Source of the DNA: Melampsora larici-populina 98AG31
Lineage: Eukaryota > Basidiomycota > Pucciniomycetes > Pucciniales > Melampsoraceae
Assembly: GCF_000204055.1 (NCBI RefSeq)
Contig: NW_006768802.1
Coordinates: forward strand, 155,318 to 219,317
Direction: 5' to 3'
Length of the DNA stretch: 64,000 nt
In this document: positions 15,067 through 30,600 of the stretch, piece by piece
Layout: every line of letters begins with the position of its first letter
Position numbering within the stretch: the stretch's first letter is position 1
Position numbers and translations under genes: made by a program
Notes under the pieces: generated by a model
Databases searched by the model: none
Told to the model about the DNA's origin: nothing
The model's input: only the letters and a program-made list of their open reading frames with translations

Positions 15067-15198
15067 ATTCACAAGTTCACTGGCTCAGCAGTGAACTTTT
15101 CTGAGTGTGGCACGTGAGATGACATGTATTTGGATGCCTCTCCTATTTCTTTAAAAAACCCAATCGCATGCAGACTATTCATACCCTACATGATGGGG

Positions 15199-15335
15199 AT
15201 ATTGTTTGTTGAACTATATACGTCAAAAATTTAAGAAGATTGTGGTATTGTATGTTTAACTATATACGTAGAAATTTTAATAAGATGGGGTGATTGTATG
15301 TTTAACTATTTACGTAGAAATTTTACTTTGATGTG
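15199..15335. repeat. Three direct copies of a ~48-bp AT-rich unit
   Basis: The core TTTAACTATATACGTAGAAA recurs three times with drift, starting at about 15202, 15243 and 15291. It lies between the 3' ends of gene B and the Tnp2-like gene. Subterminal repeats of a transposon are one explanation. Confidence 0.6.
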
Positions 15336-16009: not shown

Positions 16010-16433
16010 ATCCTGGTCCTTAGGCTGACATTTCTTGTGCCACACCGAAAGACCTTCAGTAATCGATTGTGACCATTCTGAAGGTGTCACGGGTTCCCAC
16101 TCAGCGGCGGTCACCTCCCGGTGAAATTCCGAAAAATAATGGGCACCTGCATTGATGATAAACGAGGTGGTGGCCGCGTGTGTGACCTCAGGGCGCTTCA
16201 TTGTAGTTTCGGTCCTCTCAAGCCGGTAACTCCTTGTGTTGGTGACAGCGCAGCGTGCGTCCTTGCAGTTGTGCTGCACATTGAGGACACAAGTGACCTT
16301 CTGTATGTAAAAGCGAAGAGGAATATTTTGAGGGCGAAATAAGGCAGTGCACGCGTTTGCCATAAGTAATTGACTCACGTCGGTGTGGATCCATATTTCG
16401 CTGGTGGTTTCTTTCAATTCCCTCATCCCATAA

Positions 16434-16811
16434 CACCTGTGGCGCCTTAAGCCTTCGGGACCTACCCGGAGTTAAATGTGCGACTACCTACGGATAGCTT
16501 CCGAAACGCATCATGGCAGATACGCCAGATAAGCCAGACAGATCCTGGTTGTACATTTTGTCTCAAGGTAGAAATTGTTTGGAATTTGCACCATCAAGAA
16601 ACACATTTTTGTGCATTTGAAACTACATTAGGCCTATGAGAAATTTAAAAAAAAATCCTTCCAAGACTTGAAATTTTCGAAAAAAAAAAAGCCAGACCTG
16701 TCTGACACACTTTGAGTGCGTCAGACAAGTCTGGTGGTCTTCCACAACAACACAAAAGTCCAGACATGTCTTGCATCCAGATCCGTCTGGGACATGTCTA
16801 TACAGCCAGAC
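16434..16811. repeat. Left terminal inverted repeat of the KDZ transposon
   Basis: Matches the inverse of 27317-27694 with few mismatches and small indels, such as in the poly-A run near 16680. Its inner part and the next ~150 bp carry many CCAGACNNGTCTGG-like palindromes (for example at 16692, 16725, 16758, 16870 and 16949). These are candidate transposase-binding sites. Confidence 0.9.
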
Positions 16812-17218
16812 AGCTCTGAGCAGACCTGTCCAAGGATGATGGACATACAGCAGACAGGTCTGGACCTTCAGACAGGTCTGGTGATACCCAAATTACCAGA
16901 CTTGTCTGATTGAAGAAAACCAGACCCAGGCTGTCCAATCAAGATATACAGACCTGTCTGACTGCTTCTCATTCTATCAAACTTTGAGCAATCCAATATC
17001 AAAAATGCGCTCAGCACAATAGTTGAAATCCCACACCGGATCAAGATACTTGTCACAGCCAACAAAAAACAACTCAATTTCAAAGTGAGCCAATTTCAAG
17101 AAAAAATCAAATTCAAAAAATCAATTCAATACATTTAAATAAATTTGTTCCAATTTCAATAATATCACTTTATAAAAAACAACTTCAACATAGAAGAACA
17201 TGGACACAAGAGAAATAA

Positions 17219-19163
17219 TCAAACATCTTGCCCCTCTTCCTCCATATTATGGTCTTCACTATCACTACCACCAGTTTTTTCTTTTTTGTTCATATTGTGA
17301 TCTTCATCCATTGATTTCTCAATCTCTGCCAAATCTTCGGCATTAAGAGCCACTCCCTCAGAGTCTGATTCTTCAACTCCTTCGATGTTTTTCAAACGAA
17401 AAAGGCCAGCCTTGATGTCTTCCACCCACTTTTCTCGATCCTCGGTCCGCATTTTCTTAAAACCTAAAATGAGGGCCTCCTCAGACAAAGTAACACCTTC
17501 TAAACAAACCATTTCAACAGGGACTTTTCGTTTTATCAAAGCACTCTTGGGGTCTTCAATCAGGGGGAAAGATTGAGTCGGTTTTCGGCCAAGAGCCTTG
17601 ACTGTGACAAAAATAAACGTCAATACGACAAAACTACATGTCAATACATATTCATGCCAACGAAACAGAGAGGTAAAGTGAAATCAAATCAGAATATACC
17701 GGTCAGTTGAACAAGCATTCTCCCAAGTCGGACCTTGACAATGTCACTGCGTTGAGGCTTCTCACTGCGTTTCCTCTTGAGTTTTTTTACCGGTCCTTGT
17801 GTAGCTTCTGCAATGGCATCAGCCATCGCAGAACCTTGCGCGTAAGTAGCGAAAACCCGAGCCAAACCGCTGGTCTTGTTGGCCCATCGTGCAACTTGTC
17901 GGTGGGTAGTAAACTCCTTTGTCCATCCCAATTCGTTCGATTTATCTGGAGTGAGGGTGCTTGATCCCACAAGATAATACGCAAAATTGAGGCGATTTGC
18001 TAGACATGCAAGCTAAGTAAAAAGAAACGTCACAAGCATATTAGACAAGTTGATGATCAGGCATTGGTAAGGACAAACAAATATGAAAAGATGTGTTTGA
18101 CAAACGATACTCACCTCATGTGCATGCTTTTGAAATGCTCGCAGTGACTTCCTTTGAAGGAGCCCATCCGAGGGGCCTGCCTTTGGCTTTGAGATGTTAG
18201 CTGAAACACGTTCATCGTCCACCATCTTCTCATATATAGGTCGATATTTTGCCTCTTCTTCCACAGTTAATCGTCTAACCTTTGGTAATGGTACAAAAAT
18301 ATCTCCAACATCCTCATCTTCATCATCAAGATCTTTGCTCTCACTCGGTGCAAACGGGTTGGGCGCTCCAGCTAAGGCATAGAATAGTGACGGGGAGAAA
18401 ATTGCTTTGTGATCGTCGTCTAGAGCTTTCCAGCGATCAGAGTTGATTCGGTTTCTTTCGCCTAACTGAACACCCCCATCTTCCTGGCCTTTTCCGGGCA
18501 CTTTTGCACATGTCAGAAACTCAAAACTAAAGCTAGAATCCAGAAAAACTTACTAGACAAGGATAGAGCGTCTTTTGCATACGCTAGGTACATGTCAAGG
18601 TTCCTAGAAGGCTTCTTGGGTGCGACTTCGTCACTGGATCAAATCGGAAACATCATCAATCAGCATGCCATGTGAATGAATTAATAAACAAAATAAATGA
18701 ATCACATTGCTTTCTTGATAATCCGTAGTTGCACTTTATCAACCAGTGCTAACATCAACAACTCATGCTCGTATTTTAAATGGGCAAGTTGTGCCTTAGC
18801 TTGAACTTCGCTGCTTGCTCGAGTCCCAGTGGAAGATTTGTACTTTTTGATAGCAGTGCGGATACGACCAGCAGGCCAGGCGTCCATATGTTGTGTGTAA
18901 TTGTCAACTGTGAGATTATCGGCTTCATCTAAATCTGAATCGTCTTGGTTGATTGTTGAATCGTGGTTTTGGTTGGTGTGTGTTTCATCTTCATTCTCCT
19001 CACGATGAGTTTCAGTTTGAGTGACACGTTTAGATTTTTTGCTTGACTTCTTTTTGCTTCCGGACTGAGCATTAGTGGTAGCTGTGGAACCTGTGTTAAG
19101 TTGTGAGGCAGTTTGTTCGGCAGGACCATTCGTGCGAGAAGAGGTACGAGTCAAACGAGGCAT
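17219..19163 (-). CDS. KDZ-transposon accessory protein, 539 aa, unknown function
   Basis: Five exons, all in frame: 19163-18706, 18633-18554, 18500-18115, 18012-17700, 17601-17219 (1620 nt). The N-terminus MPRLTRTSSRTNGPAEQ opens a Ser/Thr/Lys-rich low-complexity region with a basic patch (SKKKSSKKSKR, possible nuclear signal) and then an acidic stretch. The middle has RWKALDDDHKAIFSP and a helical repeat-like part (TTHRQVARWANKTSGLARVF), then a basic patch KKLKRKRSEKP. The C-terminus is strongly acidic (EEESDSEG-like, KKEKTGGSDSEDHN). I recognise no domain. It lies inside the KDZ element on the opposite strand to the transposase. A role in DNA binding or transposition control is only a guess. 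Confidence 0.85.
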
Positions 19164-19732
19164 TGAGATAGTCGGTGGTTTAGAGGGGCAAGATTCAAGT
19201 GAGGTGATAATTAATGGAGACAGAAGGGAAGACAGCACCAAGGATGAGTTCGTTGAGGAATAACAGAAGGGCAACGGATTTCACGTGCTGACGCAAGCAC
19301 TGTGTGTACATTGTCACTTGTATTTCACAAAGGATCCTGGATATCTTGCTTGATTTACCCCACACGAGTATCAGGTCACATGTTATTGCATGTCACAGAT
19401 ATGACACTGATTTAACTCGTTAAACCAGTCAAGACTCAAAGGTGTAAACATAAAAGCAATATCATTAATCAAAACCTATTGAAACCGGATCCGTTTGAGC
19501 GGCAGTCGGTACCGTTTACCCAAAGCTATGTCCAACTCAGAACCCTGCCAAACAACCGGTCCTTCAAGTATGAGCTCCCTGAGCCCTGAAACCAACACTT
19601 TAATCCCTTTCGAACTCCTTATCTCGTTCCCTTTTTTATCTTTCATTCGCTCGCTTTGTGTGGTGCAGGACTGACAGGTTCAGGCTGCTCAAGATCCACA
19701 GTTTTTCTCAGCAAGGATGGGGATTGACAGGT

Positions 19733-20158
19733 TCAAACCCATCCCTTGCTCGCTTCTTTCGTTTTCAATGTTGTTCGCTCTCTCCTTTGACACTTCTAGT
19801 CAAATTTTAAGATCATGAACGCTGATGCATTTGTTTTACTGTTTGTTTGTTTGTAGATACCAAAGTTAGATCAGTAGCTTGGTGATCGATTGCTTCAATC
19901 TCCAATTTTCTCTGATCCATCTCTATCTCAAAGTGATTCAATCATTCAAACCCATCCCTTGCTCGCTTCTTTCGTTTTCAATGTTGTTCGCTCTCTCCTT
20001 TGACACTTCTAGTCAAATTTTAAGATCATGAACGCTGATGCATTTGTTTTACTGTTTGTTTGTTTGTAGATACCAAAGTTAGATCAGTAGCTTGGTGATC
20101 GATTGCTTCAATCTCCAATTTTCTCTGATCCATCTCTATCTCAAAGTGATTCAATCAA
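19733..20158 (+). repeat. Tandem duplication of a 213-bp unit beside the gap
   Basis: The sequence from TCAAACCCATCCCTTGCTCG at 19733 recurs at 19946 and continues with near identity to about 20158, 13 bp before the N run. It may be a real tandem repeat or an assembly artefact of the gap. Confidence 0.9.
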
Positions 20159-20171
20159 TCGTTCACTTCAT

Positions 20172-20271
20172 NNNNNNNNNNNNNNNNNNNNNNNNNNNNN
20201 NNNNNNNNNNNNNNNNNNNNNNNNNNNNNNNNNNNNNNNNNNNNNNNNNNNNNNNNNNNNNNNNNNNNNNN
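20172..20271. other. Scaffold gap, exactly 100 N
   Basis: One hundred undetermined bases inside the KDZ transposon. The true length is unknown, so the element's 11,261-bp size is provisional. Predicted open frames running through the N run are not real. The remainder of 19164-22985 outside the duplication, gap and palindrome is AT-rich, and I can support no gene in it; 22740-22985 should contain the transposase promoter. Confidence 0.95.
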
Positions 20272-21349
20272 TCTGTAAGTTTATCTTGGATTTGTTTCGT
20301 CAATGGTTCACATCATATTTCTAATCACCTTTTTACCTTTAATTGTAGATCGAAGTGCCGAAACCAGAAGAATTTACAACTTTCAAAGAAAAATCCAAAG
20401 AAAAGAAAGCATAATCAACACTCAAAAAACAACTAACTGGTCCGAAATGATCGAAAGTGGTAGGATCCAAGGAATTGATTTTGTTTGAAAGTAAATCAAA
20501 TGTTAATAAAGACCCATATAAAATCAAATACACCGATTTCATCTTCTCTTCTCTATTCATCTTTCGTCTTTAATGACTTTGGACTAATTGTTTTTTTAAG
20601 TTTGCTAACATAGTTAAAAATTGATTTCTCAAGTTTTGTTTTTGTTTATGACCAATGACAAATTTAAATCTTCATGTTGTAGAATGTTATTTGTTTTCTT
20701 TCATATTAACATCAATTATAAACTATTGAAGAGGAATATCCATCAACAAGAACCAAATCAATACCCAAAAAAACCAAAAAGAACAAAAACCATCTCCTAT
20801 ATGTATATCCATGTTTATCATGTTACTTTTTACCATTAGTCTTACTTCATTTATGTTCTGATTATAGGTACCTGTGACCGACCAAAAAAATTGTTTTACA
20901 ACAACACTGTTGGTTTTCACATTACACCAATGTGAAAACATTTAAATAAAATTCGAGATGATTCTATGATGAAAGGATACTCTGTGCTTGCCTAATTACC
21001 TTACGGTTTGACACAAGATGATATGATGTTCAGAAGATGAACATTGACTTTGTATCCAAGGCCTTAAGTAAAAGAAACCCATCCTATGATGCTTGTTATG
21101 GTGGGATCTGTGCCCTCAGAGCTCACATTACATTCATTTTTTCATAAGGAATGTGACCTTATCAACAGAACTCAGGTCCATCAATTATGGACCCCACGAG
21201 CTTACTGTACACATTGTCTTCCCTACTTTGTAATAAACACCTAATATGCCCAAGTGTCTGGCCAAAATACTCGTGCTCTCTGAATAGCCAGACCTGTTAG
21301 TTAAACTTAGAAGGAAAAAATTAAATGAAATTCAAAATAGGATCATGTA

Positions 21350-22427
21350 GTTGAGCAGGAGGAATAAGTGCAATATATGGCAGGAAATCACTGATATGAT
21401 GATGAAGATGAGGAGTTGTCAGAATATGTTGATAATGGAACATGTGTACCTCAAAGAGCAACACATTTTTCATTAATGATACTGTTTGATAAATTCTCAC
21501 CTTCAATGTGTTTGTGTATGCTTTGTAGTTGAGGGGTAGGAATAAGTGCAATTTTGAGCAGTAAAGCGCTGATATGATGATGATGATGAGGGTTTATAAT
21601 AAAAAGTTAATAATGATTAATGTGCAACTTGAAGAGCAACACAATTTTTATTAATGATATTTTTGACCAACTCCTCATCTTCAATGTGTTTGTGCCAGCT
21701 TTGTGGTTGAGTTGGTGTGATCTTTCCAGTTTTGAGTACTAAAATCCTCATATGATGATGAAGATGAGGAGTTGTGTTGAGCTTGCATTATATGGAAGGT
21801 GCAAGATGCAGAGACACACCTTTTTCATTAATGGTTTTTTTTCATAACTCCTCATCTTCATAGCAAGTGAGTGGCTTTGGTGCTGGTTTTTGTGTGAAAA
21901 CCACTGGGATGCGTTGTGTGACCAATGTTGTGTCACCTGTGATTTCATGTATCTGACCCAAAATTCACCTCAAAACCCACACACACACATTGAAGGGGAG
22001 GAGTTTTAAAAAAACTTGCATAATAAAAAATATGCATCCATCTGAGCTGCACATTCTGCATTAATGATATTTTTTCATAACACCTCATCTTGATCATCAT
22101 ATTAGGATTTTAGTACTCAAAACTGGACAGATTCCACCAAATCCACTACTAAGCTGGCACAAACACATTGAAGATGAGGAGTTGGTCAAAAATATCATTG
22201 ATAAAAATTGTGTTGCTCTTCAAGTTGCACATCAATAATTATTAACTTTTTATTACAAACCCTCATCATCATCATCATATCAGCGCTTTACTGCTCAAAA
22301 TTGCACTTATTCCTACCCCTCAACTACAAAGCATACACAAACACATTGAAGGTGAGCATTTATCAAACAGTATCATTAATGAAAAATGTGTTGCTCTTTG
22401 AGGTACACATGTTCCACTATATAACCT
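21350..22427. repeat. Large palindrome of ~180-bp units inside the KDZ transposon
   Basis: Three degenerate direct units begin at about 21350, 21530 and 21708, each with TGATATGATGATGAAGATGA followed by GCAACACA...TTTCATTAATGATA. Two to three inverted units follow from about 22080 to 22427. For instance, 21443-21485 pairs with the inverse of 22374-22416. The spacer is centred near 21930-22070. It could be a nested foldback element or an internal regulatory repeat. Confidence 0.8.
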
Positions 22428-22985
22428 TGATCACCTTATCAATACTACCTCCAGTGTTCCCGTTATTGCTTTGGTTTGTCTTGTTGTTGTGGTAAATTCA
22501 CATTGCTTATCACTCAATTCCACTGTCTGATGTGGCCATTGCAACCATGGCCTTGAGGTCTTGATATTGTGGCCAGGCATTCCTAAAAGAATTCTGGGTA
22601 TCACAATATGAATATGGCCAAAGATCATATTTACATCATGACCATTTTGCTGAAGATGAAGGAGATCAGCCAGTGAGAGACTTATCTCTTTCCGGAGAAT
22701 GATCAAAAAGGTTTATGTAACCAAGACCTCATCTTGACACATGAGACATATTTGACAGCCCCTTGTTCATCCAGACAGAAAGGCAAGTGAAATGTCCCAA
22801 ATACCTTCAAAAAGGGGTGTATAGGACAGTAGCACCCCAATTAGTTTGATGGCTTGTCCCAATTGGTCAATTACGGAAATATTTGTTAGCTTAAAACTTA
22901 TATCAAGGTCAATGACCACATTTGGCATGGCACATCCCCCTCACCTCCATCGCATATAGTCTTAACTTCATACTTCAATATTTCA

Positions 22986-25900
22986 ATGGGCAATCACGGA
23001 AACTCGATCCCGTGCCCGCTAAGTCAGGCCATCAACAAGCGTTCACAAAAGACAAAAGGCAATGCTGAGATCGAGCTCGACGAGATCAATCGACTTGAAG
23101 ATGAATGGGCAGATAAACGATGTACGAAGCTCAGGAAAGTCATTTTGAATCCTCCGTTGAATACAAACGAAGCCAGTACATCAAATGAAACAAATAACCT
23201 TGAAGTTGAAGATGAAAACACCGGTCCTGCCTCACCTAATCATTTTAATCTTGATTACAACATGTTTCCTGATGAAGACGACCCGCCGCCAAGTCCCAGT
23301 GAAAATGAGTCCGACACTTCCGAAGAAAACGACGAGGTGGTTCGGCATATCACTAGTGTATCCTACCAACAAAGGCGAGTACGGGAGGAGTTGCAATGGC
23401 GTCAAAACCTCACTCCGATGTTTGTAGCTTTCATGGAAGCCAGCAAAATGACTTTGCAGTGGGGAACAGCGTCCTGGAACATTGACTGGAAACCAGAATG
23501 CGGCTGCTCTACTGCCAAGAAGAGAACTCGGCCTGTGGATGTTGTGGACATATTCAGTATGTATCAATTAGTCCTGATCCTTATGTACCACAACTAATGA
23601 ATGACCAAATAACATAACCCAGGTCGTACCAAAATGTTAATCACGTTCTGCTCTTGCCAGCCAGATGTGGTCCGATTGATTCAAATGGGATATATGGGTG
23701 GCTCACCTACTCATCCCAAAAACGCTTTTTCATTACGTTTGCTCCGATTCTTTCACATACTTTGGAAGTATGGGAGTATACGAATTCAGCCTTTTGTGCG
23801 AGCGGTAGATGAATTCCTTGACGCCAGTAATGCACTGATGCTTAGCAAAAGTACAAAAAAGGTCAGTAGTTTGAAAGTGTTTCGAAAATGGTCACCAAGG
23901 AGGAAACTGATAGAATGTTGATCAGCCACGACAATGGCGCCAACCTTTTTCATCTGCGATAGATGCATATCGACACATGTTACGCCTACAAAAAGAACTT
24001 ACCAATCGGGCCCTTTCGCTGACAAATCTTGAGCAGCTGGCCGCCAACTGCCCTCGCTGTTTTGGTCCTTCCAAACTTGATCAAGAAACCGACGAACCTG
24101 ATCATATAGTTTGCCTCGATGGAAACTTTCAACAGCGTAGACACCAAGCAGCCAGCGTCGAGAACTCCCAAATTCAATTAAGGTACCCAGCGTTATTTGT
24201 TCAACCAGCCCTGATTGAGAAGTGGCGTGTAAAGGGGGCCAGTGCACCACACTACAATGATGATCTTGTGTGTATCAACTCACAATCTTATATGTGATAT
24301 ATTGTCTTCAAAAAGTTCATCTCTGTATTTTCCTGTAGGATCCTTGTAGTCAAATGCATACCGCTGCGAATGATACAAGGACGGCTTCGACTTGGCGCGG
24401 ATGTGACAATACAGGACTACTGGGCATGGTGTGTCGACATGACCATGCCCTAGCTTTCATTAATATTGAGAAGAGCGGAGAAAAGTATGTCCATCTTTGA
24501 AATGGCACATACTTTGGTATCACTCACGTTTACATTACCTATCTAGGGCACACTTTGCTCATACAATGGTGGACTGGCTACTTGACAGAGCAAAAGAGCC
24601 AGATGACGAGCGACCGAGAAAGTGTGCGTTTCTCTACGACATTGGCTGTAACCTCGAGAAGGGTATCAAAAAGGTATCTCTTAGAATCATGACGATTCAT
24701 GATACAAGCTGATGTGTGCTATTCCCTACGTTCTTCCAGAGAGGACTCTTCCAGGGGGAAAGAAGAGCTAAACAGATTATGTTTGGTACATCTGTATTTC
24801 ACTCGTATGTACACGAATGGGGCTGCCAGTTGGGATACAGCCCACGGTTTAACTTGGGTTGGGGACTATCAGATGGAGAAGGATGTGAACGTACTTGGTT
24901 TGTACTCTGTTCCTTGGTGGCTGCACTTCGTTACAGTACCAAGCAGCATAGACTCAATGCGATCAATTGTAAAGCGAGTCACAACAATGACGTACTTCGT
25001 GCTAATGCAGGTAAGAGCTGATCACTTACTCACACCAATATTATGGTTTTCAGAAACTTAGTTGTCATATTTTCGTTTTGTCAGTACAATCAATCAAATC
25101 GAAAACAGCCCGTGCCGAGAAAACCCGAAAACAAAACTTGGACATAATAAAAAGGATTGAGCAGCAGCCTCAATATAATCGAGAATACTTCGGTGCCCAG
25201 TGGGAGCGGCAGAAGACTATACAGTCACAAGTCATTGGTTCCAATGACCTTTGGGCTCTCGAAAAACAATTGGCACAGCTTATGGACTTTGAGGAAGATT
25301 TGAGGGAGTCACAGTGAGTCCGTTTGGTTATGATAGTTTTGAAACGTCCTCATCAATGTTGCTGTTACAGGGCTAAATTGACTCAGATTCGGCAACGTCG
25401 GCGAGGAGAACGGACTGAAGCCGACCTAAACAATCTGGCCAGTCTACCTGGCTTGATTATTTATCTTGAAGAGGAGATCGAGGAGGTTGTGATTGACCTT
25501 GGTAGTGAAAGATTTCGAAATCTACCTGAAGCTTCGGGTAAGATCTGTTATTCTTTTTTGCTTGGTTTTAATGTCTTAATTTCTCACATTCTTGCCTTTA
25601 GATGATAAAGGCAAGTCTCTAATCCGAATTCGTGTTGCCAAACAAAACCTCTACGAAGCCAAAGTTGGAGTAATCGAGCACAAACGACGGTGGGATGAAC
25701 GTGGGCAGGGTGAGTATAATATCCAAGTATATTGATGGATGTAATGTTTTTGTTAATTTCATTTCTAGGTACTAAAATTCAGGATCGTATGAAGACTATT
25801 ATGACGAACAAACAGGCATTGTTAAAAAAGAAATGGCAAACTTACCACGACATGACAATCAAGTTTAACGAAACATATCCAAGTCCGAACCCCCTAGAAC

Positions 25901-26591
25901 TTAAATCCTTCGATGATGTCAAAGGTTTGGATATCAGTGATGATTTTTGGAACTTTGGCGAGCTGCAACATCCACAAGAGAGGTGGGCAGTCGATCAACC
26001 TACTCAAGTGGGAATCAGAGCGTTCCTTGCAATACGAAGCTGTGATGAGGAGCTGCGACGTATTGCAAAAGAAGTGCGTAGTCTGATGGAATGGTCCATC
26101 GTGATGGCTGGGAAACTGGAGAGGTTACATCTCTTGTCAGAAAAAGGTTGTAACTCTCTATAAATCCTTTGCTCTCCATTCTGATACTGAAATTTGAGTC
26201 GTGCTTAGCTTGGGACCCAACAGCAACGTCATTGCAATTGGATTTGGTGGTGCCGAGTGAGGCAACTCCACCTCGCATAACTAAAAAGAATTGGCTGAAG
26301 TACAGTCAGGTTCTGAAGTCATTGCACCATTCAATCAGTTTTAATCTTACTCGAACCTGGTTGGAATGGAATCATGATCTACCAGAGGTACTGCAAAAAA
26401 CTTCCATTTACTCGGATTTGGGCAACAAGTACGACGAGGGACTTGCTCTCAGCTGGAGGGGTCTAATTGCAAGTTGCCAGCTTGGTTGGGAAAATATAGT
26501 ACAGGCTCAAACAAGGATTGCTCAGCCAATTGATCCTTTAGAGGATGCTGAGCTAGATTTGTTTGATCTTCATATCCATGCCGATGGCTAA
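22986..26591 (+). CDS. KDZ transposase, 990 aa, 11 exons
   Basis: Kyakuja-Dileera-Zisupton transposase. Exons: 22986-23556, 23623-23861, 23914-24267, 24339-24484, 24547-24673, 24740-25010, 25085-25313, 25371-25537, 25602-25709, 25769-26146, 26209-26591 (2973 nt, no stop). Family hallmarks in order: CxC-like cysteines in the N-terminal third (DWKPECGC, LITFCSCQPD); WRQPFSSAIDAYRHML; CPRCFG (C316, C319); VCLDGNFQ with D339; a CxxxH cluster VCRHDHALAF; FLYDIGCNL with D468; and FHSYVHEWGCQ followed by GLSDGEGCER (E526 or E529). The two aspartates and the glutamate are the predicted RNase H-fold catalytic triad. The last ~450 residues are coiled-coil rich. The ATG at 22986 opens the first long exon. 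It should act on the 378-bp termini of its own element and is apparently intact. Confidence 0.93.
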
Positions 26592-27316
26592 TTTGTTTTT
26601 TGTGATTCATTCTTTGTTTTTATTTGTTATCTAAGCATTGCAATTCTTGGTCATAAATATTCGTTCTAAGTACAGTATTGTATTACAAACAATACTAATG
26701 CTACAAATCTTGCTGGATGAGATGCGATGAGAGCTTGAGAGGAGGTTAGGATTGCTTTCCTGATGATCGGTCTGAACTGTATGATCAATCCACACAATGG
26801 GAGATTTATGAGTTTGATTTATGAGTTTTGAGCAATCGGTTTCAAGTTTGATTACACATGATTGAGTGGAAGGGGACCTAGTAAAAGCAAGATGACGGGT
26901 TGAGTAAGCGTTGATTGGATCTAGAATCGAGAGATTTGGAAGATCAGGTATCGGGATGAGTACTTAGCTTTGCCTATGATTGATTTTTTCAAGTAATGAA
27001 TGTGATCAATTGTTGAGTTTGATACATTGTTGTTTTGTTGTTGTTTTCGATTTTGAGATGTTCAGCTGTTGTTATTTTGAGGAAGATGAAGGCCATCAGC
27101 CGGATGTTTTTAATTATACATATGTACCTTTGGTGAAAGTGCAATCTGTCAACACCACCAGATCTATCTGGTGTATGTCTGGTCAGTGGTGGGTATTTGT
27201 CCAACATCATCAGACATGTCTTACATCCAGATCCGTCTGGGGCGTGTCTTATATCCAGATCTGTCTGGGGCATATATTACATCCAGAACAGTCTGTGGCA
27301 TGTCTCACATCCAGAC
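26592..27316. other. 3' flank of the KDZ transposase and right subterminal repeats
   Basis: 26592-27130 is AT-rich without a gene. 27140-27316 carries repeated CCAGATC(C/T)GTCTGG-type palindromes in the same style as the left subterminal region. Confidence 0.6.
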
Positions 27317-27694
27317 GTGTCTGGCTGTATAGACATGTCCCAGACGGATCTGGATGCAAGACATGTCTGGACTTTTGTGTTGTTGTGGAAGACCACCAGA
27401 CTTGTCTGACGCACTCAAAGTGTGTCAGACAGGTCTGGCTTTTTTTTTCGAAAATTTCAAGTCTTGGAAGGGTTTTTTTTTAAATTTCTCATAGGCCTAA
27501 TGTAGTTTCAAATGCACAAAAATGTGTTTCTTGATGGTGCAAATTCAAAAAAATTTCTACCTTGAGACAAAATGTACAACCAGGATCTGTCTGGCTTATC
27601 TGGCGTATCTGCCATGATGCGTTTCGGAAGCTATCTGTAGGTAGTCGCACATTTAACTTCGGGTAGGTACCAAAGGCTTAAGGCGCCACAGGTG
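27317..27694. repeat. Right terminal inverted repeat of the KDZ transposon
   Basis: Inverse of 16434-16811. It ends GGCGCCACAGGTG, followed by the target duplication TCCCATAA. Homology with the left arm stops at about 27317, just inside CCAGACGTGTCTGG. Confidence 0.9.
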
Positions 27695-30600
27695 TCCCAT
27701 AATGTGGATGGAGCCCGGGGGCAAGCTGGCATTTTTTCACATGAAGTAAAACCCTTTGGCATCCAACTTGTTCCCAAATGCCGACGACATGTCCTACATG
27801 GATAGGTCGGTTTGGTTCGTTTTTGAAATCCACCTGCGTCCAAAGGCCATTTGGGCTTCAGGACATGAAACCAATGTAATTGAAGTTTGGGGAAACATAC
27901 CAAAATGAAAGACTTGTTAAGAACTTTCTGACCATTCTCGAGTGCTACCTGGAGTCCTCTTTTCCACTGGGCATTTGGCCATTGCCGGGCAAGTTCACGT
28001 GGTACATCGTCTCCGTCCTCATCGGACTGGCCTGTCCTTTTGGGGTCTGAGCTTGCTCTTTGATTAGAATGGGAAACTGATTTATGAAAAAATTGAAACA
28101 AGCGCTCACATGTAACTTTCAGAGGGTAAAGGAAGGTGAAGGCCGAGCCCATGTCGAATCACACGCTCTTTGAACAAACCACGGAGGTTTCTGGAGGCTT
28201 TTGCACGAGTACCAAGTTTGGAATCAAAGAAGGATCCACCCGAAAGAAGCATTCTTATCAACCTAGTGTCGTTGAACCGGTTCGCAATGTCATGACCAGG
28301 CGCATGGCGATTTGAATGAACGGAAGCTTGACGAGTGTCACCATTTTGAGACTCAAACTTTTCGGTTGCAAAGAGGCACGCTGGTCCAAATCTGTCAATT
28401 GAATATGGTAGGTGCGTGAGCATGTGAAATTTGGGTTTGTTAGTCCATTGCGCATTCAGCGCAATCAGTTGCTTCAAAAACCGAGCAATAACGATCTTGA
28501 GGTCCGAGATATAGACATCCTTGTTGAAAATTTTTGGCTGAAAAACATAAGATGCCAAATGAACTAATGTGATCCAACAGTGTTGGTAATCCTTTGGAAT
28601 AAAATCAAAAAAAAACAAATGGTGCAGCTTGCAAGACAACGCGAAAGTCTTTGCCAAGGAGGCTGTTGGCATAATGGACCATGTTACGCGCTTGTATCGG
28701 CGCAACATTCAACCCATCAACTTCGAATCCTTGCCAACGCCCGTGGATCGTTAACAGTTCAGCAGGCAATAATTTCGAAATGACATCGCGATATAGATAT
28801 TTTGTCACTCCTAGAAGTACCACATGTAGAGATTCCACAGGAGTGTCTAAGTGACCATCAAAAGCTACATGGAAACAGTTAGCCCCCAGGATATATGGGC
28901 CTGATGGGAATCAAGAGCGTACCTGCCAAACGTAAGAAAGGGTTGAACATATGCTCGCCATGTTTTGCTTCCAAATCAAGACAATGACATATAATGTTGT
29001 CCTGGGAGGTCTGCTCCCCTTTTGGTCGGTGCTTATTTTCCCGGTAGATCTGCTGGATTTTTTTAGCAAAAGGTAGATTCAGAGAGTCCCGAGTCCCGTA
29101 TTGTTTTGATAGGTCGTCAAATTGCTTGATGCTTTTAGGGTGCCGCGTGAGGCTCCATAGCTCCTTGGTATGCTCTCTGGTGCGGTCCCAGCTGCGGAAA
29201 GGCAGGGTGGCCTAAGAACATTTCACCTGAGTTAGTGAGGTCCATACTAACTCTGGTGAAAGTATACAAAAAAACCTCACCGGCAACCAATCATGATCAA
29301 TTCCAACAAACTTTTTAACATATGTTTCAGTTTGTTTTTCAGCCCGCGACTCCACCGTCAGATCACAAATGCGGCAAGGTGATAAAGTCCCCAAAGGATT
29401 CGTGGTGTTTGAAATTTTGGCATGCATCGGAGAGTCTCCCATGTGGCATAGGATAAAGGGCATGAGGAGGACGTCTGCCTCGATGCTACAATCATAAGAT
29501 TGAAATCCGTTGGAAGAGCCACAGCTATCATGGGTCGAAATCAGTTTTCCAAAATGACATGAACATAGACCGAGCAGGGCAGGCAAGAGCAAGACTGACT
29601 TCAATTCATCCACAATCTGATCTCCTTGCTCTAAAGCACTTGCAATATTTGAAGTACACAGCGGGTGAATATGGTACTCCTGGTTTGTGAGTTTCGGTCT
29701 CAATCCAGCCAGCGCGAAGTAAAACGACATATGCTTGTTCCATTTTTTAGAGACATTACCAGATGTATCATCTGAATACAACGCAACAGGTACACTTCGG
29801 ATGATCAAACCATTCGCTCTCACTCGCCAAGGATTGGGGAGTGAAATGCGCTTTGTACCTTGTGGGGTTTCCTCTAGATAGTTCCACAAACATGTGATCA
29901 GCATCTTCCTTGATTGTCAAAACAAACATTGAATAACTCACGGAATAATTGGGTGTTGGTGTCACACCACTTCAACCCATTCTGCAGTTCGATCCTGGTG
30001 AAAGAGCAGGCAAAAGATGAAACTTCCACATCCAAAAGCCGCCCGGAATCAAACTTTGGCTCGCCAGCAACGCAGAAGTCGTGAGAGCCTCGCGCCATGT
30101 TTAACACTGCCAAGCACTTCGCCTGTATGACCTGTTGGTCTTTATAATAGAACACCGGTACAACTACACGCAAGTCCGAGAGCTGTGCTGGCTCATATAT
30201 ATAGAAGTGCTCTCCCTCCACATCTACCATAGGCACTCGAAGATGTGAGGGTAGGTCTTCGCGCCACTTTTTTGATTGTGAATAACGATCGACGGTGACG
30301 CCTTTGTCATTTTCCGGAAGAAACTCAAGGTTTGGAGCTATTTCGGGGTTGCAGAGCTCCTAAAACGCTACATCAGGGATCTCATACCTACACGGGGAAT
30401 CTTTGGAATTCCTGAATTACTCACCTGTGATATGATATCACAGACTGAAAGAGTGAAACAGGGGTTTCTCAGCGGACTGATTTTTTCCGAGACCGTCAGC
30501 CCGAAACGGGCCTTCAGCTCTTTACGAATTTTTTTCAAATGTCCTGCAGTATATCATCCCAAGGTTTGGTCGTGGGTCAGTTCTACAGGGGTGCTCAAGG

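What the first reader, a model, noticed from the sequence alone, without database searches (positions are those of the whole stretch)
16434..27694. Structurally complete KDZ transposon with exact ends and both genes open
Seen: matching ~378-bp inverted termini, exact 8-bp duplication TCCCATAA, an 11-exon open transposase of 990 aa with D339, D468 and E526/E529, and a second open gene. Known: KDZ/Zisupton elements are usually described from transposase fragments in fungi. Inference: this copy is young and may still be active. It offers exact ends for the fungal class.
Basis: partly seen in the sequence, partly recalled or inferred. Interest (0 to 1): 0.88.

Follow-up and report, generated by a model that had tools for sequence, protein, structure and literature searches.

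The report
Two-gene KDZ transposon in poplar rust
This is a complete-looking jumping gene of a known type in a poplar rust fungus; the new part is that it, like dozens of relatives in the same genome, pairs its transposase with a second conserved gene that looks like a DNA-bending helper protein.

Summary
An 11,261-bp element (16434-27694) has 378/376-bp inverted ends (369 of 378 columns identical) and an exact 8-bp duplication. It carries an 11-exon transposase (986 aa in my model) with KDZ (E 3.9e-55) and CxC1 (E 4e-30) domains, and a divergent 5-exon, 539-aa second gene. The genome matches Melampsora larici-populina 98AG31. A 99% sister and ~70% relatives share the ends.

The class is known: Cryptococcus KDZ1-3 were caught jumping (PMC12810828), and complete fungal KDZ families are published (PMC12730594). 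Activity of this copy is not shown.

Added here: (1) the second gene is a conserved partner: of 64 loci, 43 lie within 12 kb of a KDZ/CxC1 locus, 40 of them head-to-head, 0.87 expected. (2) A family profile of one region finds HMG boxes in the PDB (26 of 27 hits, best E 9.8e-5), but the window protein is below Pfam's cut-off and fold searches list no HMG box. (3) Each end carries nine CAGACNNGTCTG-type palindromes, kept in a 70% relative.

Likely mechanism (inferred): cut-and-paste by the transposase, helped by its own HMG-like protein.

The parts
16426..16433 (.). target site duplication TCCCATAA, left
16434..16811 (+). left terminal inverted repeat (378 bp)
   Evidence: same end at C12 (99%) and ~70% at C4, C96, C224
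16693..16960 (.). left subterminal array: nine CAGACNNGTCTG-type palindromes (at most 1 mismatch), partly inside the TIR
   Evidence: also in relatives
17219..19163 (-). gene 2, 5 exons (19163-18706, 18633-18554, 18500-18115, 18012-17700, 17601-17219), 539 aa, HMG-box-like partner protein
   Evidence: partner of KDZ loci
18380..18633 (-). approximate extent of the HMG-box-like region of gene 2 (about residues 153-219, with an intron inside)
   Evidence: profile searches; position worked out by hand
19732..20157 (+). exact 213-bp tandem duplication next to the gap, probable assembly artefact
   Evidence: single in the sister copy
20172..20271 (.). 100-N assembly gap; the sister copy has no N here
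21432..22420 (.). intergenic inverted repeat, arms 21432-21776 and 22076-22420 (345 nt, 328 identical)
22986..26591 (+). transposase gene, 11 exons, 986 aa
23460..23825 (+). CxC1 domain (residues 159-258; coordinates worked out by hand, intron inside)
24100..24988 (+). KDZ catalytic domain (residues 329-558; coordinates worked out by hand, introns inside)
27211..27437 (.). right subterminal array: nine CAGACNNGTCTG-type palindromes (at most 1 mismatch)
27319..27694 (-). right terminal inverted repeat (376 bp)
27695..27702 (.). target site duplication TCCCATAA, right

Best explanation
This is a complete two-gene DNA transposon of the KDZ superfamily. Shown: exact ends, an 8-bp duplication, a CxC1-KDZ transposase with DDE-type motif residues, and a second gene that is conserved, divergently transcribed and associated with KDZ loci across the genome. 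Inferred: the transposase cuts at the TIR ends and inserts with an 8-bp stagger; the gene-2 product is an HMG-box-like DNA-binding and bending protein supplied by the element itself, which acts on the subterminal palindrome arrays (alone or with the transposase's CxC1 domain) to bring the two ends together. This is the role that host HMGB1 plays for Sleeping Beauty and RAG.
For: Ends and duplication. KDZ E 3.9e-55 and CxC1 E 4e-30. Both genes evolve as coding sequence against C4. Gene 2 head-to-head with a transposase locus at 40 of 64 loci, 0.87 expected. HMG profile hits, 25 of 25 and 26 of 27 PDB hits, against 0 and 5 non-HMG hits in two column-shuffled controls. Eighteen of the window's 20 palindromes (at most 1 mismatch) lie at the two ends, and the motif is kept in C4, C96 and C224. 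HMGB1 help is established for Sleeping Beauty (PMC7827188, passages) and RAG (PMC2324110, abstract).
Against: The window's gene-2 segment scores below Pfam's cut-off (13.5 of 22.4 bits). AlphaFold models are poor (mean pLDDT 53.6 and 47.1), and the HMG region is weak in the second. Fold searches list no HMG box. With the whole-family profile 14-3-3 ranks above HMGB1 (E 0.025 against 0.13), and another region hits 14-3-3 at E 0.0023, so E-values near 1e-3 can be spurious here. 177 of 223 transposase loci have no listed gene 2 nearby. No binding, bending or transposition was tested.
Confidence: 0.55

Rival explanations
1. Gene 2 is a regulator: it controls the divergent promoters or protects the element from silencing, and is not a transposition cofactor.
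For: It is transcribed away from the same intergenic region as the transposase. Rust transposons of several classes carry TET/JBP genes thought to counter silencing (PMC12730594, abstract and sections). HMG boxes also occur in transcription factors (general knowledge).
Against: No Pfam TET/JBP match in either gene. The palindrome arrays lie at the ends and not between the genes (interior count 0 at up to 1 mismatch).
Confidence: 0.25
2. Gene 2 binds the palindromes as a sequence-specific factor of another fold (as TnpA-type proteins do in CACTA elements, recalled), and the HMG resemblance is chance.
Against: All of these Z are below 8. Sequence profiles of those two regions gave no hit or unrelated hits, while the HMG region gave almost only HMG boxes.
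Confidence: 0.15
3. Gene 2 is passive cargo captured from the host.
For: 21 of 64 gene-2 loci have no listed transposase locus within 12 kb.
Against: 40 of the 43 paired loci are head-to-head, and gene 2 is under selection similar to the transposase. The transposase lists are capped, so some of the 21 may be misses.
Confidence: 0.05

Closest known systems
KDZ1, KDZ2 and KDZ3 of Cryptococcus neoformans (PMC12810828, passages)
   Same: CxC1+KDZ transposase, ~9.2-11 kb, TIRs of 139-241 bp, TSDs of 8 bp (KDZ1) or 4-8 bp (KDZ2, KDZ3)
   Different: Shown to jump. The passages I read do not mention a second gene; I did not see their sequences. TIRs here are longer (378 bp).
TET+ Dileera elements of rusts, including M. 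larici-populina (PMC12730594, sections)
   Same: KDZ group, rust host, 8-bp TSDs (given there for Zisupton-1_PGr)
   Different: They carry a TET/JBP gene. Here the two genes and the eight intergenic or subterminal ORFs tested gave no TET/JBP match.
HMGB1-assisted transposition: Sleeping Beauty (PMC7827188, passages) and RAG cleavage (PMC2324110, abstract)
   Same: Proposed working only: an HMG-box protein bends end DNA and helps assemble the paired complex
   Different: HMGB1 is a host protein; here the helper would be encoded by the transposon. Untested.

Membership tests
KDZ superfamily transposon | KDZ catalytic domain (PF18758) above the curated cut-off | tested here: met
   187.3 bits against 26.6, E 3.9e-55
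KDZ superfamily transposon | CxC-type cysteine cluster N-terminal to it | tested here: met
   CxC1 104.5 bits against 26.9
KDZ superfamily transposon | TIRs and 8-bp TSD (Zisupton, per PMC12730594) | tested here: met
KDZ superfamily transposon | further copies with the same ends | tested here: met
   C12 at 99%; C4, C96, C224 at ~70%
Kyakuja subgroup | 7-bp TSD and no TIRs (PMC12730594) | tested here: not met
   8-bp TSD and long TIRs
Dileera or Zisupton subgroup | position in the transposase tree with named references | not tested
   no named reference sequences were at hand; no tree was built
TET+ KDZ transposon | a TET/JBP dioxygenase gene in the element | tested here: not met
   no Pfam TET/JBP match in the two genes or in eight further ORFs; very distant forms are not excluded
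HMG-box protein (gene 2) | Pfam HMG model above the curated cut-off | tested here: not met
   window segment 13.5 bits against 22.4 for HMG_box_2; 10 of 13 members match HMG_box_2 (best E 0.0021) and 6 of 13 HMG_box (best E 0.031) at E <= 10, scores of the others not shown
HMG-box protein (gene 2) | profile similarity to HMG boxes of known structure | tested here: met
   26 of 27 hits, best E 9.8e-5; two shuffled controls without HMG hits
HMG-box protein (gene 2) | three-helix HMG fold | tested here: inconclusive
   helices over 171-230 with block pLDDT 62-91 in one model, weak in the other; no HMG box in fold searches

The most novel reading that the evidence does not exclude
Many KDZ transposons of Melampsora are two-gene systems that encode their own HMG-box-like DNA-bending cofactor head-to-head with the transposase and carry arrays of a palindromic binding site at both ends: a self-supplied version of the HMGB1 help that Sleeping Beauty and RAG take from the host.
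Probability: 0.45. Interest if true: 0.65.

Novelty: new variant of a known kind. Interest (0 to 1): 0.5.

Why it matters
As a KDZ element it is one more complete member. The conserved head-to-head partner with an HMG-like region and the palindromic end arrays make a concrete, testable proposal for how this large, little-studied transposase class assembles its ends, and link it to the HMGB1-assisted mechanisms of RAG and Sleeping Beauty.

Tried and rejected

In print: searches (listings; of the listed papers I read only parts of PMC12730594, PMC12810828 and PMC12477816) showed no HMG gene in a KDZ element. Iyer et al. 2014, the founding paper on fungal KDZ, is not held and may mention one.
Full report
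What is there. The window lies in contig C38 of a 98.3-Mb genome of 243 contigs. The protein record P0002, named MELLADRAFT_109639 of Melampsora larici-populina 98AG31, sits on a contig of 903,405 bases, the length of C38, so I take the organism to be the poplar leaf rust. The element runs from 16434 to 27694 (11,261 bp). Its ends are inverted repeats of 378 and 376 bp, 369 of 378 columns identical, flanked by TCCCATAA on both sides.

Genes. The plus-strand gene (22986-26591) reads through 11 exons as 986 aa. It holds CxC1 (residues 159-258, E 4e-30) and KDZ (329-558, E 3.9e-55) domains, and also a CxC2 match just over its cut-off. The minus-strand gene (19163-17219) reads through 5 exons as 539 aa and has no Pfam match of note. 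My first transposase model broke at intron 3 and was changed by two bases, so I tested both models against the ~71% relative on C4. Third codon positions differ two to three times as often as first and second (transposase 0.20/0.14/0.40; gene 2 0.22/0.17/0.43), and introns differ at 0.45 and 0.41. Both genes evolve as coding sequence. The C4 copy shows several exon indels that are not multiples of three in this alignment and may be decayed.

Copies. The left TIR finds nine matches: the element's own two arms and one short internal repeat, a 99% copy at C12, four ~70% ends (C96, C4 twice, C224), and one short match on C224. The C12 sister is 99.2% identical over 3.5 kb and 99.3% over another 0.9 kb. 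Its gene 2 differs at eight exon bases (one silent, seven replacing, one of these a stop) and has a 1-base deletion and a 12-base insertion. It breaks off at the equivalent of 21164, where sequence beginning CACTACAC follows and then N to the end of the stretch I fetched, 12,060 bases. The transposase gene finds only itself, the 71% C4 copy and shorter pieces. So the window copy is the only complete one of this ~99% family that I saw, and its activity is open. The 100-N gap in the window, next to an exact 213-bp duplication, is single and without N in the sister. The matching duplications at both ends argue against a chimera.

The second gene is a conserved partner. The gene-2 protein gives 118 matches in the genome (80 of 459 candidates scored), merged into 64 loci. 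KDZ (150 listed of 207 matches; 150 of 555 candidates scored) and CxC1 (150 matches; 150 of 307 candidates scored) merge into 223 transposase loci. Of the 64 gene-2 loci, the nearest transposase locus within 12 kb is head-to-head in 40 (median distance 4.2 kb), convergent in 2, tandem in 1, and absent in 21. Uniform placement predicts 0.87 head-to-head and 3.5 in any orientation. Transposons cluster, so the uniform figure is too low, but 40 of 43 head-to-head, where about a quarter is expected by orientation alone, is strong. With KDZ alone the figures are 22 head-to-head, 2 tandem, 1 convergent and 39 none. From the other side, 177 of 223 transposase loci have no listed gene 2 within 12 kb, so many KDZ loci lack it or it was missed.

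What gene 2 may be. A profile of seven family members over residues ~150-236 finds 25 PDB sequences up to E 10, all HMG-box proteins, best HMGB1 at E 3e-4. Thirteen members give 27 hits, 26 of them HMG-box proteins, best E 9.8e-5. Two column-shuffled controls of the seven-member profile give 0 and 5 hits, none an HMG box, best E 0.69. In Pfam, 10 of 13 members match HMG_box_2 (best E 0.0021) and 6 of 13 HMG_box (best E 0.031); the window's own segment is below the cut-off, 13.5 of 22.4 bits, and the other scores are not shown. Against this: the whole-family profile ranks 14-3-3 (E 0.025) above HMGB1 (E 0.13), another region hits 14-3-3 at E 0.0023, and hits to homologous HMG boxes are not independent. 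The AlphaFold models are poor (mean pLDDT 53.6 and 47.1). In the first, helices over 171-230 are among the better parts (block pLDDT 62-91); in the second that region is weak. Fold searches list no HMG box. I therefore call it HMG-box-like and do not file it as a member.

Subterminal arrays. CAGACNNGTCTG with at most one mismatch occurs 20 times in the window, 18 of them in two blocks, nine at each end (offsets 259-515 and 257-472 from the ends); 1.9 are expected in the window. The nine exact matches all lie in these blocks, six left and three right. In the C4 relative, where the TIR is ~70% identical, 18 of 19 matches lie near its ends; C96 has 12 of 13 near its left end, C224 six near its end, and the C12 sister all nine of its left end. 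This suggests a protein-binding site; which protein binds is unknown.

Mechanism. Reported for the class: Cryptococcus KDZ1-3 with CxC1 and KDZ domains insert with TSDs of 8 bp or 4-8 bp (PMC12810828, passages). Inferred here: the transposase cuts at the CACCTG...CAGGTG ends and inserts with an 8-bp stagger; the gene-2 protein binds or bends the arrays and helps pair the ends, as HMGB1 does for Sleeping Beauty (PMC7827188, passages) and RAG (PMC2324110, abstract). None of these steps was tested.

Compared with what is known. KDZ1 of Cryptococcus has the same size, TSD and domains, with shorter TIRs. Rust KDZ elements with a TET/JBP gene, some from M. larici-populina, are described (PMC12730594, section). 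In nine paper searches I found no HMG-like partner gene described; Iyer et al. 2014 could not be read. The transposase's 67 listed homologues are nearly all from Melampsora and Puccinia where named.

Verdict. A real, structurally complete KDZ transposon with a conserved two-gene layout: ordinary as a KDZ element, moderately interesting for its HMG-like partner and palindromic ends. Interest 0.5; new variant of a known kind.

Noticed in passing
L020/L021 (C4:1737964 and 1749056) and L022 (C96:210202): The two 8-bp flanks of the complete ~70% relative on C4 do not match (GATCCTTT, ATGGTCCT), but its left flank is the reverse complement of the flank of the C96 end (AAAGGATC). The C4 and C96 ends may belong to one insertion: a scaffolding chimera or recombination between copies.
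   Followed up: partly
21432-22420: A 345-nt inverted repeat (328 identical) lies between the two divergent genes; weak relatives (65-69%) lie at C66, C11 and C6 near gene-2 or KDZ loci. Could form a long hairpin if transcribed.
   Followed up: partly
L018 (C12:1524646-1524940): The sister copy is cut by sequence beginning CACTACAC, perhaps a CACTA-type end, which by eye resembles the sequence left of the same copy.
   Followed up: no
genome G000: KDZ (207 matches) and CxC1 (150 matches) domains are very abundant in this genome, as lower bounds.
   Followed up: no
[not shown]
   Followed up: partly
16034-16303: The left flank has eight other places in the genome at 68-77% identity, a repeated gene or element family; the right flank is unique.
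   Followed up: no
15192-15329: Three tandem copies of a 46-bp unit just outside the element.
   Followed up: no
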